Assembly: GCF_003967275.1 (NCBI RefSeq)
Contig: NZ_AP018721.1
Span: 1,240,001-1,304,000, forward strand
Length of the DNA stretch: 64,000 nt
Source of the DNA: Sulfuritortus calidifontis
Lineage (GTDB): Bacteria > Pseudomonadota > Gammaproteobacteria > Burkholderiales > Thiobacillaceae
Direction: 5' to 3'
Part shown: in pieces, positions 5,673 through 11,353 of the stretch
How positions within the stretch are numbered: position 1 is the stretch's first letter
Layout of the letters: each line of letters begins with the position of its first letter
Notes under the pieces: generated by a model
Database searches by the model: none
Told to the model about the DNA's origin: nothing
Seen by the model: only the letters and a program-made list of their open reading frames with translations
Position numbers and translations under genes: made by a program

Positions 5673-5717
5673 TGGCTCCCCGACCTGGGCTCGAACCAGG
5701 GACCTGCGGATTAACAG
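5673..5717 (-). repeat. attL: duplicated 3' half of tRNA-Asn
   Basis: A 45-bp sequence identical to 8703-8747. On the minus strand it reads from the anticodon loop to CCA of tRNA-Asn but lacks the 5' half, so it is not a functional tRNA. It marks the distal junction of the integrated element and adjoins the old tRNA terminator. Confidence 0.92.
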
Positions 5718-5821
5718 GCGTAGCTATTTCTAACTGTACTTTGTAAATCAATGCCTTGCATCACCCGTGCTCGGCATACGTAGCCACGTGAAGCCCGGAA
5801 ATCCGTCCGGGTGGTTTCTCA

Positions 5822-5843
5822 GTGGTTACGTTTTGGTTACGGT
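5822..5843 (+). promoter_or_regulatory. Possible integrase arm-type site (left)
   Basis: Two GGTTACG copies are spaced 11 bp apart (5824-5830 and 5835-5841), about one helical turn. The 22-bp block matches 8634-8655 at 20 of 22 positions in the same orientation. In the circular form the two blocks would flank the att core at roughly 50-105 bp, as arm-type integrase sites do. This is inferred from position and repetition. Confidence 0.5.
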
Positions 5844-5850
5844 GAACAGT

Positions 5851-6051
5851 ATGAAAATCAAGATTGACGAGGAACGCGTTGAACAGATGCAGACGCTTAC
5901 CACGATTCCGATGCTACCTGAGCACGTTGAGTATTTCGCCGATTTTCTTATGGAGGTCGGATTTGCCACGGTGAACGAGGCAATGCGCCGGCATCCCGGT
6001 TTGACCTTCGGTGATTTGGTGATGATCCGCTTTCGCATCAATCACCACTGA
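5851..6051 (+). CDS. Small element-encoded protein (66 aa)
   Basis: The ATG at 5851 gives a 66-residue protein, MKIKIDEERVEQMQTLTTIP..., with a short predicted helix around LPEHVEYFADFLMEVGFATVNEAMRRHP and no cysteines or membrane segment. The frame stays open upstream to 5767, but 5851 begins a better amphipathic start. No strong Shine-Dalgarno sequence is visible. It is the first gene of the integrated element and might be a regulator or copy-control protein; nothing in it is recognised. Confidence 0.5.
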   Translation: MKIKIDEERVEQMQTLTTIPMLPEHVEYFADFLMEVGFATVNEAMRRHPGLTFGDLVMIRFRINHH

Positions 6052-6157
6052 GCGTTATCCACATATCCATAGCCCGAAGCCCTGGGCGCGCGTGGCGGAC
6101 GCCACGCACCAGCGCGCCCAGGGGCGCGAAGCGCGGCTGTGGGTATGTGGGTAACGC
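6052..6157. other. 106-nt cruciform, candidate replication origin
   Basis: Three nested stems share one axis. The outer arms (6052-6074 and 6135-6157) are 23 nt with 20 matches; the three mismatches would be G-T wobbles on one strand. The middle arms (6080-6091 and 6112-6123) are 12 nt and perfect. The inner stem CGTGGCG/CGCCACG has a 2-nt loop. It lies upstream of the replication initiator gene, where a rolling-circle double- or single-strand origin would be expected. A structured leader RNA is the alternative. Confidence 0.6.
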
Positions 6158-6384
6158 GGCCAGGACTTGACAGATGCATTTTTAATGCCATAGGCTTAAA
6201 GCGTCTGTCACAAGACGGTATTGAGACGACCCAAATAACGGGACCCGAAAAAACGGGAGCGACCGTAGCCCAGGGATGCATTAGCCTATTAGAAGCAGCG
6301 CAAGGGGGAATGCAGCAGCGGCAAATAGACAGAGGCTTGCGCCCCTGTCTTGTGACTTCATCAATGCTATTCGATGAGGTCGCC
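6158..6384 (+). promoter_or_regulatory. rep leader region with weak promoter
   Basis: A TTGACA box at 6167-6172 is followed after 18 nt by TAGGCT (6191-6196), a weak -10. Downstream, GTCACAAGAC (6207-6216) and GTCTTGTGAC (6346-6355) are perfect 10-nt inverse copies about 130 nt apart. A local hairpin AGACAG/CTGTCT lies next to the second copy. The leader could therefore fold into a long-range structure before the rep start. No credible gene lies in this stretch. Confidence 0.4.
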
Positions 6385-7449
6385 ATGCCTGCCACACATC
6401 CACCTGGCATTCCGCCAGGACAGAACTTCCCCATTAGTGAACATTCGGGCACGGCCCCTGAGCCTGTGCATACTGGCGAGCGCGCAGGCGCCGGCGGTAT
6501 GCGCGGGCGAAGGGCCTCCCCCCGTATAGTAACTACGGGGGGAAACTCTTTCCCCTCGGAAAATCCCTCCGGGGCCTTGCCCCGGTTGGCTCACGTCGAT
6601 TGGTTGGCCTTCACCATCGCCCCGCCCGAGGTCGATCCCATCCGCTGGCTACTTCCCCATCTTGCGGCCCTGTTCGGTGTTTCCTCCCTCACATCGCGTG
6701 GCAAGGGGGCCTTCGGTTACTCGCAGTCCTACGACCTGGGCGGCCACGGCATCCTTGCAGTAGGGGGGAAAGGTCAGAAGGGGACGGCCTACGTTTCCCT
6801 GACCGGTGCCGGCTGCGCCCACGTCAAGGACTGGCAGGCGGTCCAGGATTGGCTGGAAGCCAACGGCGCACGGCTCAAACGTGTAGATGTCGCCCATGAT
6901 GACCATGACGGCGAAACCCTCAGCATCGAGCGTGCGGTGGAGTGGTACAACGCGGACGGATTCAGCACCGGAGGCCGCCGCCCTGGGCACCAGGTCAAGG
7001 GCGATTGGCTCACCGCGGGTAGCCCCAAGGGCCGAACCCTCTACATCGGCAACCGCGCCAACGGCAAAATGGCCCGCATCTACGAGAAGGGGAAGCAGCT
7101 AGGCGACCCGGAAAGCCCCTGGGTCCGGGCCGAAGTTGAGTTCAAGGATCAAAGTCGAGTGCTGCCCTATGACATGCTCACGCGGCCCGGCGTCTATCTG
7201 GCCGGGGCTTATGCCTGCTTCGGCTTCCTCTCGATCATCCAGGAGAAGGTCCGCACTATCGCCAAGGCCGCCAAGATCGCACTAGGTGCCCTGGTCCACT
7301 ATGCCAAGCAAGCCTATGGTCCCCTGGTGAACGTCCTTATGGCGAAGCATGGCAAGAACGCCGCCGCTGTGGTCGCTGAGCTGATCCGCCCCGGTGTGCC
7401 GCGCCGGCTCGCTGATTACCCGCCAGGATTGGCAGGGGCCGCGACGTGA
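6385..7449 (+). CDS. Replication initiation protein, filamentous-phage RstA type
   Basis: A 354-residue protein of the Rep_trans-like family (replication initiation factor), which starts rolling-circle replication by nicking the origin. Recognisable stretches are LAHVDWLAFTIAP, KRVDVAHDDHDG (aspartates and histidine near a metal site), TLYIGNRANGKMARIYEKGKQLGD (the Y-x-K motif with a candidate catalytic tyrosine), WVRAEVEFKDQSRVLPYDML and a C-terminal PGVPRRLADYP. The ATG at 6385 was chosen because GAGG lies 6 nt upstream; the frame stays open further upstream to 6139. The stop overlaps the HTH gene start (GTGA). The first 80 residues are poorly conserved in style. Confidence 0.82.
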   Translation: MPATHPPGIPPGQNFPISEHSGTAPEPVHTGERAGAGGMRGRRASPRIVTTGGNSFPSENPSGALPRLAHVDWLAFTIAPPEVDPIRWLLPHLAALFGVSSLTSRGKGAFGYSQSYDLGGHGILAVGGKGQKGTAYVSLTGAGCAHVKDWQAVQDWLEANGARLKRVDVAHDDHDGETLSIERAVEWYNADGFSTGGRRPGHQVKGDWLTAGSPKGRTLYIGNRANGKMARIYEKGKQLGDPESPWVRAEVEFKDQSRVLPYDMLTRPGVYLAGAYACFGFLSIIQEKVRTIAKAAKIALGALVHYAKQAYGPLVNVLMAKHGKNAAAVVAELIRPGVPRRLADYPPGLAGAAT

Positions 7450-7745
7450 AAACCCTCGACCTGCATGCCGCTGCCGACTTGCTCCATATCCACCCCGTAA
7501 CCCTGCGGGAAAAGGCCCGCTGCGGTGAAATTCCAGGGGCCAAGATCGGCAAGAGCTGGGTATTCGTGGACGTTGATCTGATCGATTACATCCGCGCACA
7601 ATACCCGGCGCGGGTGATGCAGGGTGACCGACAGGAGAAATCCGAATGTCACTCTACAAGCGTAAGGACTCTTCCGTCTGGTGGATCAAGCTCCGCCACG
7701 CTGGAAAGGTCATACAAAGAAGTACTGGGACTGACGACAAGCTGA
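7446..7745 (+). CDS. HTH (AlpA/excisionase-like) protein
   Basis: A 99-residue product starting with GTG that overlaps the rep stop. Residues 1-55 form a MerR-type/HTH_17 DNA-binding fold: LDLHAAADLLHIHPVTLREKARCGEIPGAKIGKSWVFVDVDLIDYI. Such proteins act as excisionases or as regulators of integrase in small integrative elements. The last 35 residues overlap the start of the integrase gene by 100 nt and look unstructured. The long overlap suggests the conserved part is the functional unit. Confidence 0.8.
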   Translation: MKTLDLHAAADLLHIHPVTLREKARCGEIPGAKIGKSWVFVDVDLIDYIRAQYPARVMQGDRQEKSECHSTSVRTLPSGGSSSATLERSYKEVLGLTTS

Positions 7746-8668
7746 AGGCCCAGGAGTACCACGACCGGTTAAAAGCCTCGTTGTGGGAGCAAGTGCGGCT
7801 CGGGGCAAAACCCCGGCGCACTTGGCAGGAAGCGGTAGTGCGCTGGCTGTCGGAAACCGCCGACAAGCGCACCCATCGCGAAGATGTGCGGAAGCTGAAA
7901 TGGCTCCATCCCTTCCTCGGGGCGCTGCACCTGGACGAAATCACGCTCGACGTGATCGACCAAATTAAGGCGGCTCGGCTCAAGGAGGGCTCAAAGTCTA
8001 CGGCGAACCGCTACTTGGCCCTGGTGCGGTCCATCCTCATTCGCTCACGCGACGAATGGGAATGGCTGGACAAGGTGCCCAAGGTGAAGCTCTTTAAAGA
8101 ACCGGAAGGACGCGAACGTGCCCTCACGCCTGAGCAGGCTAGGCGGCTCTTGGAAGTCTTGCCCGCCCATCAGCGGGATGTGGTGACCTTCGCACTCCTG
8201 ACGGGATTGAGACAGTCGAACGTGTTGGGTCTGCAATGGTCGCAGGTCGATCTGGAACGGCGATTCGCCTGGATCGAGGGATGGCAGTCGAAAAACCGCC
8301 GTCCGATCCCGGTGCCTCTCAGCGAGGAGGCCGTAATGGTCTTGCTCCGCCAGGTCGGCAAGCATCCTGAGAAGGTGTTCACCTTCAATGGCAAGCCGAT
8401 CAAACAGGCCAACACGAAAGCATGGCAGGAAGCGCGCAAGCGGGCAGGCATCGAGGATTTCCGCTGGCACGATCTGCGCCATACCTGGGCGACGTGGCAC
8501 CGGCAGGCGGGAACGCCTACGCATGAGCTGCAGCGCCTGGGAGGCTGGAGAACGGCTTCGATGGTCGAGCGATATGCGCACCACGCGCCCGACCAGCTAG
8601 CCGCCGCCCCGGCCCGTCTCAATGCGGTAATTGGTGGTTACGATTTGGCTACGGTAGGCCAGAAATGA
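7646..8668 (+). CDS. Tyrosine recombinase / integrase
   Basis: A 340-residue phage-type integrase. An N-terminal arm-binding region (YKRKDSSVWWIKLRHAGK) is followed by a SAM-like core-binding domain and the catalytic domain. Catalytic residues are complete: R189 (TGLRQSN), K216, H275 and R278 (HDLRHTW), W301 in place of the usual second histidine, and nucleophile Y310 (VERYAH). AGGAG lies 9 nt before the ATG. It sits beside the intact tRNA-Asn, as expected for an integrase next to its attachment site. The right arm-type repeat overlaps its last codons. Confidence 0.95.
   Translation: MSLYKRKDSSVWWIKLRHAGKVIQRSTGTDDKLKAQEYHDRLKASLWEQVRLGAKPRRTWQEAVVRWLSETADKRTHREDVRKLKWLHPFLGALHLDEITLDVIDQIKAARLKEGSKSTANRYLALVRSILIRSRDEWEWLDKVPKVKLFKEPEGRERALTPEQARRLLEVLPAHQRDVVTFALLTGLRQSNVLGLQWSQVDLERRFAWIEGWQSKNRRPIPVPLSEEAVMVLLRQVGKHPEKVFTFNGKPIKQANTKAWQEARKRAGIEDFRWHDLRHTWATWHRQAGTPTHELQRLGGWRTASMVERYAHHAPDQLAAAPARLNAVIGGYDLATVGQK
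8634..8655 (+). promoter_or_regulatory. Possible integrase arm-type site (right)
   Basis: This block matches 5822-5843 at 20 of 22 positions and has the same internal pair (GGTTACG and GGCTACG, 11 bp apart). It lies inside the 3' end of the integrase gene, about 50 bp from the att core. Together the pair would bracket the core in the excised circle. Confidence 0.5.
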
Positions 8669-8694
8669 AAAAGCCCCGCATTGCTGCGAGGCTT
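8668..8694 (-). terminator. Terminator downstream of tRNA-Asn, brought by the element
   Basis: Arms 8671-8680 and 8685-8694 form a 10-bp stem with one mismatch and a TTGC loop. The A-run at 8668-8672 becomes a T-run on the minus strand, so it terminates tRNA-Asn transcription. On the plus strand there is no T tail, so it would end integrase transcription only weakly. Confidence 0.75.
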
Positions 8695-8702
8695 AGTGCA
8701 TC

Positions 8703-8747
8703 TGGCTCCCCGACCTGGGCTCGAACCAGGGACCTGCGGATTAACAG
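8703..8747 (-). repeat. attR: 3' half of intact tRNA-Asn
   Basis: Identical to the 45 bp at 5673-5717. Here it completes the functional tRNA gene, so integration preserved the tRNA by supplying its 3' half from the element. Confidence 0.92.
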
Positions 8748-8778
8748 TCCGTCGCTCTACCGACTGAGCTATCGGGGA
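8703..8778 (-). tRNA. tRNA-Asn(GTT)
   Basis: On the minus strand it starts TCCCCGA and ends TCGGGGAGCCA. The D arm is GCTC/GAGC, the anticodon loop reads CTGTTAA with anticodon GTT, and the T arm is CCTGG-TTCGAGC-CCAGG. The 3' CCA is encoded. It is the integration target of the element at 5673-8747. Confidence 0.97.
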
Positions 8779-8837
8779 ATTGAGAGGCGCGTATGATAGG
8801 CTGTTGGCCGTTTTCGGTCAACAGATGTGATGCACGA

Positions 8838-10160
8838 ATGCAGCTTGCGAAGCGTTGGAAGATCGCCCTGATCAGTCTATCGGTAGTGCTGGGCGGTCTG
8901 TTGGTTCTACCTTTTCTCATCCCGACAGAGAGCTATCGCATCCGCCTGCAGGAAGCGGCTTCCGAGAAGTTGGGCGAGCCGGTCGATATCGGCCGGCTGA
9001 GTTTCACCTTGTTGCCCTGGCCTGCCGCCACCTTGGCCGATCTCAGTATCGGCGCAGAGCAAGCCGTGAAGCTGGGGGCGGTGACGGTGACGCCGGACCT
9101 GTTTTCCCTATTCGACGAGGTCAAGGTGATCCAATCTGTCGCCGTGCGGGAGGTTGCGGTGAACCCGGCCTTGCTTGGCCGCATTGCCGAATGGGCCAAG
9201 CCTCGGCCCGGACCGCAGACGGTACTGGTCCGCCGCGTCGAGCTGCGCGGCATGAATCTGGATTTGGGCGCCCTGAAATGGGGGCCTTTGCAAGCCGAGG
9301 TCCGCATGAACATGGCTGGCCTGCAATCGGTCCAGGCTGGGCCGGAGGATGGCAGCATGACATTGACTCTATTGCCCGAACCTGAAGAGCGCTACCGGGT
9401 GGTGCTCGAAGGCCGCCAGTTCAAACTGCCGATCAAGCCCGCACTGCTGTTCGACAGCCTGCAGGGCCAGGGCAGGCTGACCAAACAGGGGCTCGATCTG
9501 CTGCAATTGAATGCCCGCCTCTATGGCGGCGATTTACAGGCCCCGATCCGCCTGGATTGGCGGGATGGCTGGCAGGTGGATGGCACAATCAAGACGACAG
9601 GCGTGGAGGTGAGCCAGATCGTGCACATGCTGAGTCCGTCCAGTGCCTTCAGCGGTCGGCTTTATGCGGATGGCCGTTACCGGATGGCGGCACCTTCGCC
9701 GGGTGAACTGGCCGACAGGCTGCAAGCCAAGGTGAATTTCGAGGTCAAGGACGGCGTGCTCGACAAGGTCAACCTTGCCCAGGCGGCCAAGCTGCTGACC
9801 CGTCAGGGCAGCCGTGGCGGCCAGACCCGGTTCGATCGGTTGAGCGGTGTGGCCGAGGTCGAGGGCAGGCAATATCGTCTGCGCGAGATCGAGATCAGTT
9901 CCGGTATCTTGAATGCCAAAGGCGATGTCGCCATCAGCCCGGCCAAGGAGCTGTCCGGGCAGGTGACGGTGGAATTGAAAGCGACGGCCACCCTGGTGGC
10001 GGTGCCCTTGAACGTGAGCGGCACGGTGCATGACCCCCTCCTGTTGCCGAGCGGCATGGCGGTGGCGGGGGCGGCGGTGGGCACCGGTCTGCTGGGGCCG
10101 GGCCTGGGTACGGCGATTGGTTCCAAGGCCGGCCAGGCCCTGGAAAAGCTCTTCAAATAG
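8838..10160 (+). CDS. AsmA family protein
   Basis: A 440-residue protein with one N-terminal membrane anchor (WKIALISLSVVLGGLLVLPFLIP) followed directly by the AsmA signature region (YRIRLQEAASEKLGEPVDIGRLSFTLLPWPAATLADLSIG). The rest is beta-rich and periplasmic, ending in a glycine-rich stretch. AsmA-like proteins bridge the inner and outer membranes and affect lipid traffic. The ATG at 8838 places the anchor at the N-terminus; an upstream ATG at 8793 is in frame but adds an unlikely cysteine-rich lead. It is alone on its strand, between tRNA-Asn and a convergent aminotransferase. Confidence 0.85.
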   Translation: MQLAKRWKIALISLSVVLGGLLVLPFLIPTESYRIRLQEAASEKLGEPVDIGRLSFTLLPWPAATLADLSIGAEQAVKLGAVTVTPDLFSLFDEVKVIQSVAVREVAVNPALLGRIAEWAKPRPGPQTVLVRRVELRGMNLDLGALKWGPLQAEVRMNMAGLQSVQAGPEDGSMTLTLLPEPEERYRVVLEGRQFKLPIKPALLFDSLQGQGRLTKQGLDLLQLNARLYGGDLQAPIRLDWRDGWQVDGTIKTTGVEVSQIVHMLSPSSAFSGRLYADGRYRMAAPSPGELADRLQAKVNFEVKDGVLDKVNLAQAAKLLTRQGSRGGQTRFDRLSGVAEVEGRQYRLREIEISSGILNAKGDVAISPAKELSGQVTVELKATATLVAVPLNVSGTVHDPLLLPSGMAVAGAAVGTGLLGPGLGTAIGSKAGQALEKLFK

Positions 10161-10162
10161 AT

Positions 10163-11353
10163 TTAGGCGAGGGCCTTGGCGATGCGCTCCAAGGCTTTTT
10201 CCAAGTTCTGCATGGAAGTGGCGAAGGACAGCCGGATATAGCCCTCGGCGCCGAAGGCCGATCCGGGCACCACGGCCACGCCGTGGTCGAGCAGGTACTG
10301 GCTCAGGGCCATGTCGGTCCTGGCGGTGAGCTTGCCGGCGGCGAACAGGGCGTCGATGGCATCGCGCACGTCCGGGAAGGCATAGAAGGCGCCGCCGCTT
10401 TCCACGCACTTCACGCCGGCGATGGCGTTCAAAGTATCCACCACGAAACGATGGCGCTCCTTGAACGCGGCCAGCATGGGCTGGATGCAGGCCTGGTCGC
10501 CGTTGAGGGCGGCCTCGGCCGCCACCTGCGAGATCGAGGTGGGGTTGGAGGTGCTCTGCGACTGGATGTTCTCCATGGCCGCGATCAGGTCGGCCGGACC
10601 GGCGCTATAGCCGATGCGCCAGCCGGTCATGGCATAGGCCTTGGACACGCCGTTGAGCACCACGGTGCGTTCGTACAGGTCCGGACAGGCGTTGAGGATG
10701 TTGACGAAGGGGGTGTCGACCAGGCGGATGTGCTCGTACATGTCGTCGGTGGCGATCAGCACCTTGGGGTGCTTGCGCAGCACCTCGCCCAGGGCCTTGA
10801 GTTCGTCCAGGCTGTAGAGGGCACCGGTCGGGTTGGACGGGCTGTTGATCACCAGCATTTTGGTGTGGCTGGTGATGGCCCTTTGCAGCTGAGACGGCGT
10901 GAGCTTGAAGCCCTGCTCGATGCCGGCCTCGACGATCACCGGCTTGCCGTCGGCCAGCACCACGATGTCGGGATAGGACACCCAGTAGGGCGCCGGGATG
11001 ATCACCTCGTCACCCGGGTTGATGTAGGCCTGGACCAGGTTGTAGAAGCTCTGTTTGCCGCCGCAGGAGACCAGGATCTGCTTCGGCAGGTAGTCGAGGC
11101 CGTTTTCCCGCTTGAACTTGGCGACGATGGCCTGCTTGAGCGAGGGGGTGCCGCCGACCGCCGTGTATTTGGTGAAGCCCTGGTGGATCGCCGCGATGGC
11201 GGCTTCCTTGATGTGCTGCGGGGTGTCGAAATCGGGCTCACCCACGCCCAGGCCGATGATGTCGCGGCCATCGGCCTTGAGCTTGGCCGCCAGGGCCGAC
11301 ACGGCCAGGGTGGGGGAGGGCTTGATGTTCTTGACGCGGTGGGAGAGTTCCAA
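10163..11353 (-). CDS. Class I pyridoxal-phosphate aminotransferase (aspartate type)
   Basis: A 396-residue fold-type I aminotransferase. It begins in the usual way (ELSHRVKNIKPSPTLAVSALAAKL) and contains GLGVGEPDFDTP, the NSPSNPTGA motif, and NGVSKAYAMTGWRIGY with the PLP-binding lysine. It closely resembles bacterial AspC/AspB-type aspartate aminotransferases of the 1-beta subgroup, which may also act on prephenate. The frame is open upstream, but TTG at 11353 has AAGG about 10 nt before it and matches the family's N-terminus. It diverges from uvrB. Confidence 0.92.
   Translation of the reverse strand: MELSHRVKNIKPSPTLAVSALAAKLKADGRDIIGLGVGEPDFDTPQHIKEAAIAAIHQGFTKYTAVGGTPSLKQAIVAKFKRENGLDYLPKQILVSCGGKQSFYNLVQAYINPGDEVIIPAPYWVSYPDIVVLADGKPVIVEAGIEQGFKLTPSQLQRAITSHTKMLVINSPSNPTGALYSLDELKALGEVLRKHPKVLIATDDMYEHIRLVDTPFVNILNACPDLYERTVVLNGVSKAYAMTGWRIGYSAGPADLIAAMENIQSQSTSNPTSISQVAAEAALNGDQACIQPMLAAFKERHRFVVDTLNAIAGVKCVESGGAFYAFPDVRDAIDALFAAGKLTARTDMALSQYLLDHGVAVVPGSAFGAEGYIRLSFATSMQNLEKALERIAKALA

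What the first reader, a model, noticed from the sequence alone, without database searches (positions are those of the whole stretch)
5673..8747. Minimal 3,030-bp integrative element with a filamentous-phage-type replicator
Identical 45-bp att repeats at tRNA-Asn enclose just four genes: an unknown small gene, an RstA-like initiator, an HTH protein and an integrase. There are no coat or assembly genes. The combination of rolling-circle replicator and tRNA-targeting tyrosine integrase in 3 kb suggests a satellite of filamentous phages or a new class of tiny integrative replicons.
Basis: partly seen in the sequence, partly recalled or inferred. Interest (0 to 1): 0.72.

Follow-up and report, generated by a model that had tools for sequence, protein, structure and literature searches.

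The report
Tiny coatless self-excising defence-cargo element
A 3-kilobase piece of mobile DNA that sits in a tRNA gene and carries little more than what it should need to cut itself out and copy itself belongs to a recurring family of coatless relatives of filamentous viruses, some of which carry genes that protect bacteria from viruses.

Summary
Identical 45-bp repeats at 5673-5717 and 8703-8747, the right one inside tRNA-Asn, enclose Orf1, a Rep_trans initiator, an excisionase-like HTH protein and a tyrosine integrase. It is mobile: another species of the genus has it at the same tRNA with one difference between 5736 and 8747, while adjoining flanks are 51-77% identical per 100 bp. It is not a one-off remnant. 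Coatless Rep-(Xis)-Int elements of 2.9-7.7 kb sit at tRNA-Asn, -Lys, -Pro, -Thr, -His and one further tRNA-like site; four of ten delimited ones carry recognised anti-phage genes (BglII R-M, CBASS, GmrSD, dGTPase). Int and Rep show purifying selection. Two DNA features were missed: a nick hairpin inside rep, found in 15 of 15 coatless loci and shared with filamentous phages, and a covarying hairpin with DnaA-box arms, strong in 7 related loci, at best weak in 80 viral Rep loci. Best reading: an integrative rolling-circle replicon with an inovirus-type replicator and a cargo slot. Its vehicle between cells is unknown: the host genome shows no VirB4 and only one marginal Zot match.

The parts
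5673..5717 (.). attL, 45-bp copy of the 3' part of tRNA-Asn
   Evidence: Identical to 8703-8747
5824..5841 (+). left arm-type repeat, probable Int/Xis binding site
   Evidence: GGTTACG(T/A)TTTGG(T/C)TACG-like sequence 151-155 bp from the left end in 6 of 6 elements scanned; in L206 and L236 with 5 mismatches of 18
5851..6051 (+). Orf1, 66 aa, function unknown; in the cargo slot
   Evidence: 52% identical homologue in L055, 32% in L206; other genes in its place in L056, L058, L236
6052..6157 (+). large hairpin with TTATCCACA / TTACCCACA (DnaA-box-like) arms and GCGCGAAGCGC mini-hairpin; proposed single-strand initiation site
   Evidence: Fold z = -7.1 on this strand, -5.8 on the other; 9 pairs with changes on both sides, 0/500 shuffles
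6207..6216 (+). left arm of a leader inverted repeat upstream of rep
   Evidence: GTC(A/G)CA(A/G)GAC in 5 of 5 aligned elements; not seen by eye in L058, which was not aligned
6347..6356 (+). right arm of the leader inverted repeat
   Evidence: GTCTTG(T/C)GAC; A-T to G-C compensatory change in L055 and L056; imperfect in L206
6385..7449 (+). Rep, Rep_trans rolling-circle initiator
   Evidence: PF02486, phrog_453; D154, R248/D250, T300/G304, Y315/K317 and W328/R330/E332 invariant in 11 aligned Reps, numbered from 6139
6517..6543 (+). proposed double-strand origin: hairpin TCCCCCCGTA-TAGTAAC-TACGGGGGGA, nick predicted between 6530 and 6531
   Evidence: nic convention from PMC9371924 passages
7446..7745 (+). 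Xis, excisionase-like HTH_17 protein
   Evidence: HTH_17 and PHROG excisionase hits; 72-80% identical in L055, L056, L057, L058
7646..8668 (+). Int, tyrosine integrase
   Evidence: PF00589, phrog_1; R189, K216, H275, R278, W301, Y310 invariant in 8 aligned Ints (their catalytic role is recalled)
8636..8653 (+). right arm-type repeat
   Evidence: found in 5 of 6 elements scanned; not in L236 at that threshold
8703..8747 (.). attR, inside tRNA-Asn
8703..8778 (-). tRNA-Asn (GTT), the integration target, intact
   Evidence: ARAGORN, Rfam

Best explanation
This is a complete, coatless, integrative rolling-circle replicon that shares its replicator with filamentous phages. Proposed cycle: (1) Xis and Int recombine the 45-bp att copies, bridged by arm sites on both sides, leaving an intact tRNA-Asn and a 3.03-kb circle. 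(2) Rep nicks the top strand at GT'AA in the loop of the GC-rich hairpin inside its own gene and starts rolling-circle synthesis. (3) On the displaced single strand the 106-nt hairpin folds, host DnaA binds its arms and loads DnaB and primase (as at an ABC-primosome A-site), and the complementary strand is made. (4) Circles reintegrate at a tRNA-Asn, at home or in a new cell. The stretch between the left end and rep is a cargo slot: Orf1 only here; anti-phage genes in some relatives. Shown by sequence: site, genes, recent transfer, recurrence, conserved structure, selection. Inferred: excision, nicking, DnaA role, any benefit to the host. Unknown: the vehicle between cells.
For: Recent transfer: in L054 (G001; held elsewhere as Thiobacillus sp. 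UBA2597) only 1 difference between 5736 and 8747 (at 7589), while the five nearest 100-bp bins are 51-77% identical on the left and 72-77% on the right. Element-free sites. Same four genes at other tRNAs: L055, tRNA-Lys, 3,010 bp, Orf1 52%, Rep 47%, Xis 81%, Int 77%; L206, tRNA-Pro, 3,092 bp. Sizes 2,944-7,732 bp over ten delimited elements. Int dN/dS 0.10-0.16, Rep 0.27-0.37. Nick hairpin with (G/C)TAA in the loop, 90-180 bp into rep, in 15 of 15 coatless loci. DnaA-box hairpin: 9 of 38 pairs changed on both sides, covariation score reached by 0/500 shuffles. Defence cargo.
Against: No excision, replication, nicking or transfer has been observed; no reads were available. Further out, flank bins reach 83-99%, so the contrast is with the adjoining stretches, not with all of the chromosome. 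The large hairpin could instead act in RNA, bind Rep, or be a packaging signal; only 5 sequences support the covariation, one of the five measures (pair types) was reached by 50/500 shuffles, and the search model was built from the same five. The opposite strand also folds well (-41.3 against -46.1 kcal/mol). No match to it in coatless L209, L207, L208, L006, L133, L213 (L209 has only a chance-level match elsewhere in the locus), which must use something else. The Gram-positive nic site is CT'AA, here GT'AA. Some copies look broken: L209 (int in two frames, no Xis found), L205 (int interrupted), L067 (partial int). Most genomes compared are MAGs or drafts.
Confidence: 0.72

Rival explanations
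1. Satellite of filamentous phages: the excised circle is replicated by its own Rep, and its single strand is coated and exported by a helper inovirus, as RS1 is by CTX phage (mechanism recalled; RS1 is named as a satellite in PMC11389934 passages).
For: Rep and its nick hairpin are of inovirus type. A full inovirus (L247) carries a related Rep and an Int 69-71% identical to those of L236 and L206, so coatless and coated forms share modules. Prophages with Zot and a related Int occur in the same family.
Against: 0 of 10 carrier genomes have a clear full-length Zot; 3 of 10 have partial or marginal matches. The conserved hairpin has no strong match in 80 viral Rep loci (best 27.5 bits); in 64 earlier sources the scores above 21 bits were in coatless elements and in four G358/G457 loci. 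The nearest phage-record matches of Int, at 48%, are Burkholderia phages of 36-39 kb, so this Int type is no mark of inoviruses.
Confidence: 0.3
2. Satellite or passenger of tailed phages, like PICMIs or the tmRNA islands moved by a jumbo phage: it excises on infection and is packaged by the helper, and its cargo defends the host.
For: Same minimal logic: PICMIs have three core proteins for excision and replication and protect against other phages (PMC10803314, abstract and passages). Our Xis falls in PF12728, one of the two Pfam models by which that paper recognises the PICMI protein AlpA, itself likened there to excisionases. A tmRNA island with an inovirus Gp2-like gene and type II R-M is moved by a jumbo phage (PMC12595487 passages). 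Four of ten elements carry anti-phage genes. Rolling-circle copying could make concatemers (inference).
Against: No primase, no fis or tmRNA site; no packaging site known. At 3 kb it would need concatemers.
Confidence: 0.28
3. Integrative mobilizable element: Rep doubles as a MOBT-like relaxase and a conjugative helper moves the nicked strand.
For: MOBT relaxases are related to Rep_trans initiators, and their nic site is CT'AA in the loop of a GC-rich hairpin (PMC9371924 passages); streptococcal IMEs with PF02486, some without a coupling protein, are common (PMC5357655 passages).
Against: No HTH domain detected in Rep of the window, L058 or L206, whereas most MOBT relaxases from ICEs have an N-terminal HTH. 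VirB4 (PF03135) in only 2 of 10 carriers and not in the host. MOBT relaxases were not put in my trees, so kinship to them was not tested.
Confidence: 0.17
4. Degraded filamentous prophage that happens to keep a few genes.
For: Replicator and some integrases are shared with inoviruses. One coatless Rep (L209) groups with an inovirus (91/82), so losses may have happened more than once; the coatless elements are not one clade (p 2.9e-5).
Against: The same four-gene plan recurs at three tRNAs (window, L055, L206) with Rep 51-52% identical to the window's, purifying selection, recent transfer of the intact minimal form, and no Zot match in the coatless loci scanned, three of which are short or end near rep (L205, L213, L215).
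Confidence: 0.08

Closest known systems
Filamentous phages (Inoviridae) with Rep_trans/RstA-type Rep, some with a tyrosine integrase
   Same: Rep family, nick hairpin in the rep gene; L247 also has an integrase close to those of L206 and L236
   Different: No coat, Zot/pI, secretin or ssDNA-binding protein gene seen; the DnaA-box hairpin was not found strongly in them
AICEs such as pSAM2
   Same: int, xis and repSA in one operon, tRNA target, rolling-circle replication (PMC3218068 passages)
   Different: Rep_trans instead of HUH RepSA; no FtsK-like Tra; Gram-negative hosts. L057 and L078 do pair a related Xis-Int with an HUH-type Rep
MOBT ICEs and IMEs (ICEBs1, Tn916, streptococcal IMEs)
   Same: Rep_trans protein, hairpin nic site, integrase
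   Different: No N-terminal HTH detected, GT'AA instead of CT'AA, no conjugation gene seen
PICMI satellites of virulent phages
   Same: Three core proteins for excision and replication, one of them an HTH_17-class excisionase-like protein; small size; protection from phages
   Different: Rolling-circle Rep instead of primase, tRNA targets instead of fis, no known helper; 3.0 kb against about 6 kb (a 49-kb concatemer of 8 copies)
RS1 satellite of CTX phage
   Same: Coatless element with a Rep_trans initiator (recalled)
   Different: RS1 uses XerCD at dif and has no integrase (recalled)
tRNA/tmRNA genomic islands with defence cargo, such as I55
   Same: Tyrosine integrase, direct repeats, no transfer genes, R-M cargo (PMC12595487 passages)
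   Different: Those range from just under 20 kb to over 70 kb; the minimal form here is 3 kb

Membership tests
Integrative genomic island in a tRNA gene | tRNA gene restored, displaced fragment and direct repeat at the other end, integrase inside | tested here: met
Integrative genomic island in a tRNA gene | Element-free sites in relatives | tested here: met
   L070, L071 clearly; L069, L072 in short contigs
Inoviridae | pI/Zot morphogenesis ATPase | tested here: not met
   Families of the element's four proteins; host-wide Zot search rings only marginally and elsewhere; Zot profile negative in the coatless loci
Inoviridae | Rolling-circle initiator of a phage type | tested here: met
   phrog_453 1.8e-83; 74 of 80 kept IMG/VR relatives lie with Zot
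Filamentous phage satellite | Packaging by a helper inovirus | not testable with these tools
   No virion data; no clear Zot in carriers
Filamentous phage satellite | Packaging signal shared with a helper | tested here: inconclusive
   Hairpin model has no strong match in 80 viral Rep loci, but packaging signals need not be conserved in sequence
MOBT IME | PF02486 protein with nic hairpin | tested here: met
   loop has GT'AA, not CT'AA
MOBT IME | N-terminal HTH domain | tested here: not met
   Pfam scans of three Reps show Rep_trans only above cut-off; a divergent HTH could be missed
MOBT IME | Mobilisation by a conjugative helper | not testable with these tools
   VirB4 not found in the host
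AICE | rep-xis-int next to att in a tRNA gene | tested here: met
AICE | FtsK/SpoIIIE-like Tra | tested here: not met
   The four proteins have other families or none
PICMI | Integrase and AlpA (PF05930 or PF12728) | tested here: met
   PF00589 and PF12728; model list
PICMI | Primase, and site next to fis | tested here: not met
   Rep_trans instead of primase; tRNA-Asn site

The most novel reading that the evidence does not exclude
A long-lived class of capsidless elements, sharing ancestry with filamentous phages and keeping little more than Rep, Xis, Int and two DNA hairpins, which spreads through Burkholderiales by hitching on phages and carries exchangeable anti-phage modules; copying of its single strand relies on a DnaA-loading hairpin. 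It would be an integrase-bearing counterpart of RS1 and among the smallest complete integrative replicons.
Probability: 0.33. Interest if true: 0.8.

Novelty: new variant of a known kind. Interest (0 to 1): 0.62.

Why it matters
Surveys that look for inoviruses by the pI gene (as in PMC6813254, passages) would not see such elements, yet in 9 of the 23 sampled genomes of the order with this Rep at E <= 1e-30 the Rep lies with a related integrase gene and no Zot was found beside it (window and G001 included; in G829 and G847 int looks broken; G829, G640 and G631 lie on short contigs or near an end). They show how small a complete integrative replicon may be, tie filamentous-phage replicators to anti-phage cargo, and give a compact case for testing DnaA-dependent priming on a natural rolling-circle element.

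Tried and rejected
Orf1 function: Pfam, PHROGs and NCBIfam gave nothing convincing; an AlphaFold2 model from 3 sequences is all-helical with mean pLDDT 69 and was not searched further. Resident helper in the host: the only Zot match in G000 is marginal (20.9 bits against a cut-off of 20.3, 67 of 197 positions) and 4-5 of 14 control genomes also ring, so it was not counted as an inovirus. Sigma-70 promoter scan: none found, no use. Rfam: nothing but the tRNA above its gathering score. Exact nick-hairpin search in viral contigs: 0 matches; arm pattern there: 0; blastn of the large hairpin in plasmids and phages: none. Large hairpin as an inovirus-wide signal: not supported. Weak hairpin matches in G115, G650 and G581 lie in loci without Rep or Int by my profiles and were set aside; G079 was not looked at. 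Nick hairpin: not found in the Acinetobacter replicon L134. Strand preference by model score (113.7 against 41 bits) was dropped as an argument because the model was built on that strand; folding shows only a modest difference. Rows dropped: L008, L075 and L215 from the first Rep tree because the matched stretch was short or partial; L007 was not called coatless (contig end); the second tree used the first 40 of 80 viral Reps and 5 of the earlier inovirus rows. L221 (two Reps) and L328 (one Rep) had neither Zot nor Int by my profiles and stay unassigned.


Full report
Check of the observation. The 45-bp repeats are exact, 3,030 bp apart, and occur only twice in the window. The right copy is the 3' part of an intact tRNA-Asn on the minus strand. 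Four genes fill the element: Orf1 (66 aa), a Rep_trans protein, an excisionase-like HTH protein and a tyrosine integrase. In L070 and L071, gene blocks from both sides of the window bracket a tRNA-Asn without the element; L069 and L072 are short contigs with the tRNA, one long flank and no match to the element's proteins.

Recent transfer. Another genome of the genus (G001; the same contig is held as Thiobacillus sp. UBA2597) has the element at the same tRNA. Within 5736-8747 there is one difference, at 7589; in the 18 bp after attL there are five more. The five nearest 100-bp bins are 51-77% identical on the left and 72-77% on the right; beyond about 10 kb they reach 83-99%, and left of 4.8 kb, where the global alignment fails, a local one gives 91%. 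The element is thus more alike than any neighbouring stretch of its length, as expected for recent horizontal transfer.

A recurring family. The integrase search in 117 family genomes gave 21 with a match at E <= 1e-60. L055 has the same four genes in 3,010 bp at tRNA-Lys; L056 (4,022 bp, tRNA-Asn) and L058 (4,428 bp, tRNA-Lys) carry extra genes. Rep itself is rarer: 4 of 61 relatives, 23 of 399 sampled genomes of the order at E <= 1e-30, 3 of 360 of the class at E <= 1e-40, 4 loci in a pattern-based scan of genome contigs. In the order set Rep lies with Int and no Zot in 9 genomes, with Zot in 13 (two of these, L212 and L222, also with a more distant Int), and with neither in one, L221. Further delimited coatless elements: L206 (3,092 bp, tRNA-Pro), L209 (2,944 bp, tRNA-Thr), L006 (5,605 bp, tRNA-His), L207 and L208 (7,732 and 6,756 bp, same att sequence, tRNA-like by eye, twice in one genome) and L236 (3,880 bp, tRNA-Pro). 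By my profile no Xis was found in L209, L006 or L205. L213, L215, L133 and L205 could not be delimited.

Cargo. Of the ten delimited Rep_trans elements (window, L055, L056, L058, L206, L209, L006, L207, L208, L236; the G001 copy not counted again), four carry recognised anti-phage genes: BglII endonuclease (Pfam; not in PADLOC) with an MT-A70 methyltransferase (L058), a CBASS cyclase with two Cap15-type effectors (L207), GmrSD (L208), and a dGTPase (L006). L207 also has ParDE, and L208 near-identical genes by eye. L056 has two unknown proteins, L236 a PEP-CTERM protein. The window, L055 and L206 have Orf1 alone, and in L209 I recognised no cargo. A related Xis-Int pair also occurs with an HUH-type Rep (L057, L078), in L078 with an MqsA antitoxin. 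All these are profile matches; no function was tested.

Origin of the parts. In the first Rep tree the 13 coatless rows are not one clade (p-AU 2.9e-5). In a second tree, with 40 IMG/VR and 2 further genome rows and only 5 of the earlier inovirus rows, seven coatless Reps (window, L206, L055, L205, L236, L056, L058) group together (94/68), while L209 pairs with an inovirus (91/82). So the minimal form looks old in one lineage and probably arose more than once. An inovirus, L247, has an integrase 71% identical to that of L206, whose Int is only 33% identical to the window's. The window's Int is 48% identical to those of Burkholderia phages of 36-39 kb, so it is not a mark of inoviruses. In L236 a left end of the tRNA-Asn type (GCGGATTAACAG plus the arm site) lies inside a tRNA-Pro element, which reads as a fossil of an integrase swap.

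Nick site. Inside the start of rep lies TCCCCCCGTA-TAGTAAC-TACGGGGGGA (6517-6543). Hairpins with (G/C)TAA in or at the loop lie 90-180 bp into rep in 15 of 15 coatless loci, also in L007, in phage Cf2 (73 bp in), Dulem virus 61 and, further in, the prophage L068, but not in the Acinetobacter replicon L134 (rep starts are my ORF calls). A loose scan found at least one such hairpin in 46 of 80 IMG/VR loci, a few of them away from rep. Alone, the hairpin's folding energy is not unusual (z -1.9); its weight comes from conservation in place and form. Rep_trans and MOBT proteins nick CT'AA in such a loop (PMC9371924, passages). The motifs listed in PMC5714925 (passages) are invariant at their key positions, except that the last E of motif III is Q in the window.

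Large hairpin. 6052-6157 folds at -46.1 kcal/mol (z -7.1), the other strand at -41.3 (z -5.8). On five elements 9 of 38 pairs have changes on both sides; covariation score 0.266 against a shuffled mean of 0.131, reached by 0 of 500; slid structures score at most 0.121; the count of pair types was reached by 50 of 500. Several pairs are T-G on the rep strand and would be A-C on the other. The covariance model, built from these five, finds them by construction; beyond them it strongly finds the G001 copy and L236 (82 bits). In 399 order genomes 6 matched at E <= 0.01, two of them weakly. Among 82 further sources, 80 of them viral Rep loci, the best score was 27.5 bits. The arms hold TTATCCACA, the DnaA-box consensus (recalled). 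DnaA loads DnaB on a single-stranded hairpin with a DnaA box (PMC6127211, passages); this is the basis for step 3 of the mechanism, which is inferred. The same arms occur, with other loops, in two tRNA-linked phage-like elements of G358 and in six places of G457; the backward pattern had no match in 369 genomes.

Selection and regulation. dN/dS is 0.10-0.16 for Int and 0.27-0.37 for Rep; synonymous changes are near saturation in several pairs, and for Orf1 saturated. A leader inverted repeat upstream of rep, GTC(A/G)CAAGAC with GTCTTG(T/C)GAC, has a compensatory change in L055 and L056 and is imperfect in L206; it may control rep, which is inferred.

What moves it. In ten carrier genomes there is no clear full-length Zot (3 partial or marginal matches) and VirB4 in two. 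The host genome, complete in one contig, has no VirB4 match and one marginal Zot match. Any filamentous or conjugative vehicle would therefore most likely come from outside; tailed prophages were not searched for. Literature in the open-licence library: the listings of searches showed no description of Rep_trans-Xis-Int elements of this kind in Gram-negative bacteria; subscription journals and most preprints are not covered. The nearest published ideas are PICMIs and phage-moved tmRNA islands.

Verdict. A real, recently transferred, recurring class of minimal integrative rolling-circle elements with filamentous-phage replicators and an exchangeable slot. Membership in inoviruses fails (no pI/Zot); working like a satellite, of filamentous or tailed phages, remains possible and untested.

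Noticed in passing
L236:5784-6200: Fossil tRNA-Asn-type left end (GCGGATTAACAG and arm site) inside a tRNA-Pro element: sign of an integrase module swap.
   Followed up: partly
L207 and L208 (one genome, G624): Two related elements with the same att sequence, one with CBASS, one with GmrSD, both with ParDE-like genes.
   Followed up: partly
L057: Two integrases and two att copies at one tRNA-Lys, as in a tandem insertion; the first has the related Xis-Int but an HUH-type Rep.
   Followed up: partly
L170, L171 (G358) and L172-L177 (G457): DnaA-box hairpin arms like those of the element: in G358 in tRNA-linked elements, one with terminase and capsid genes, one with an SSB gene; in G457 six dispersed copies, mostly near contig ends.
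   Followed up: partly
L207, L208, L006, L215, L058: A conserved small protein upstream of rep (LESALGM-HIGHHLGWKVLYIIHSK-like, likeness by eye); the L207/L208 and L058 versions have no Pfam match.
   Followed up: no
window 6207-6356: Conserved inverted repeat in the rep leader, possible control of rep.
   Followed up: partly
L067 (G071): Partial int, 96% identical over the last 102 residues, at tRNA-Asn: a decayed copy of the element.
   Followed up: no
L205 (G829): int interrupted by transposase-like ORFs (by eye) while rep looks intact.
   Followed up: no
window 8787-10172: The gene to the right of tRNA-Asn has no aligned counterpart between tRNA-Asn and the next gene in L070, L071 and L072.
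   Followed up: no
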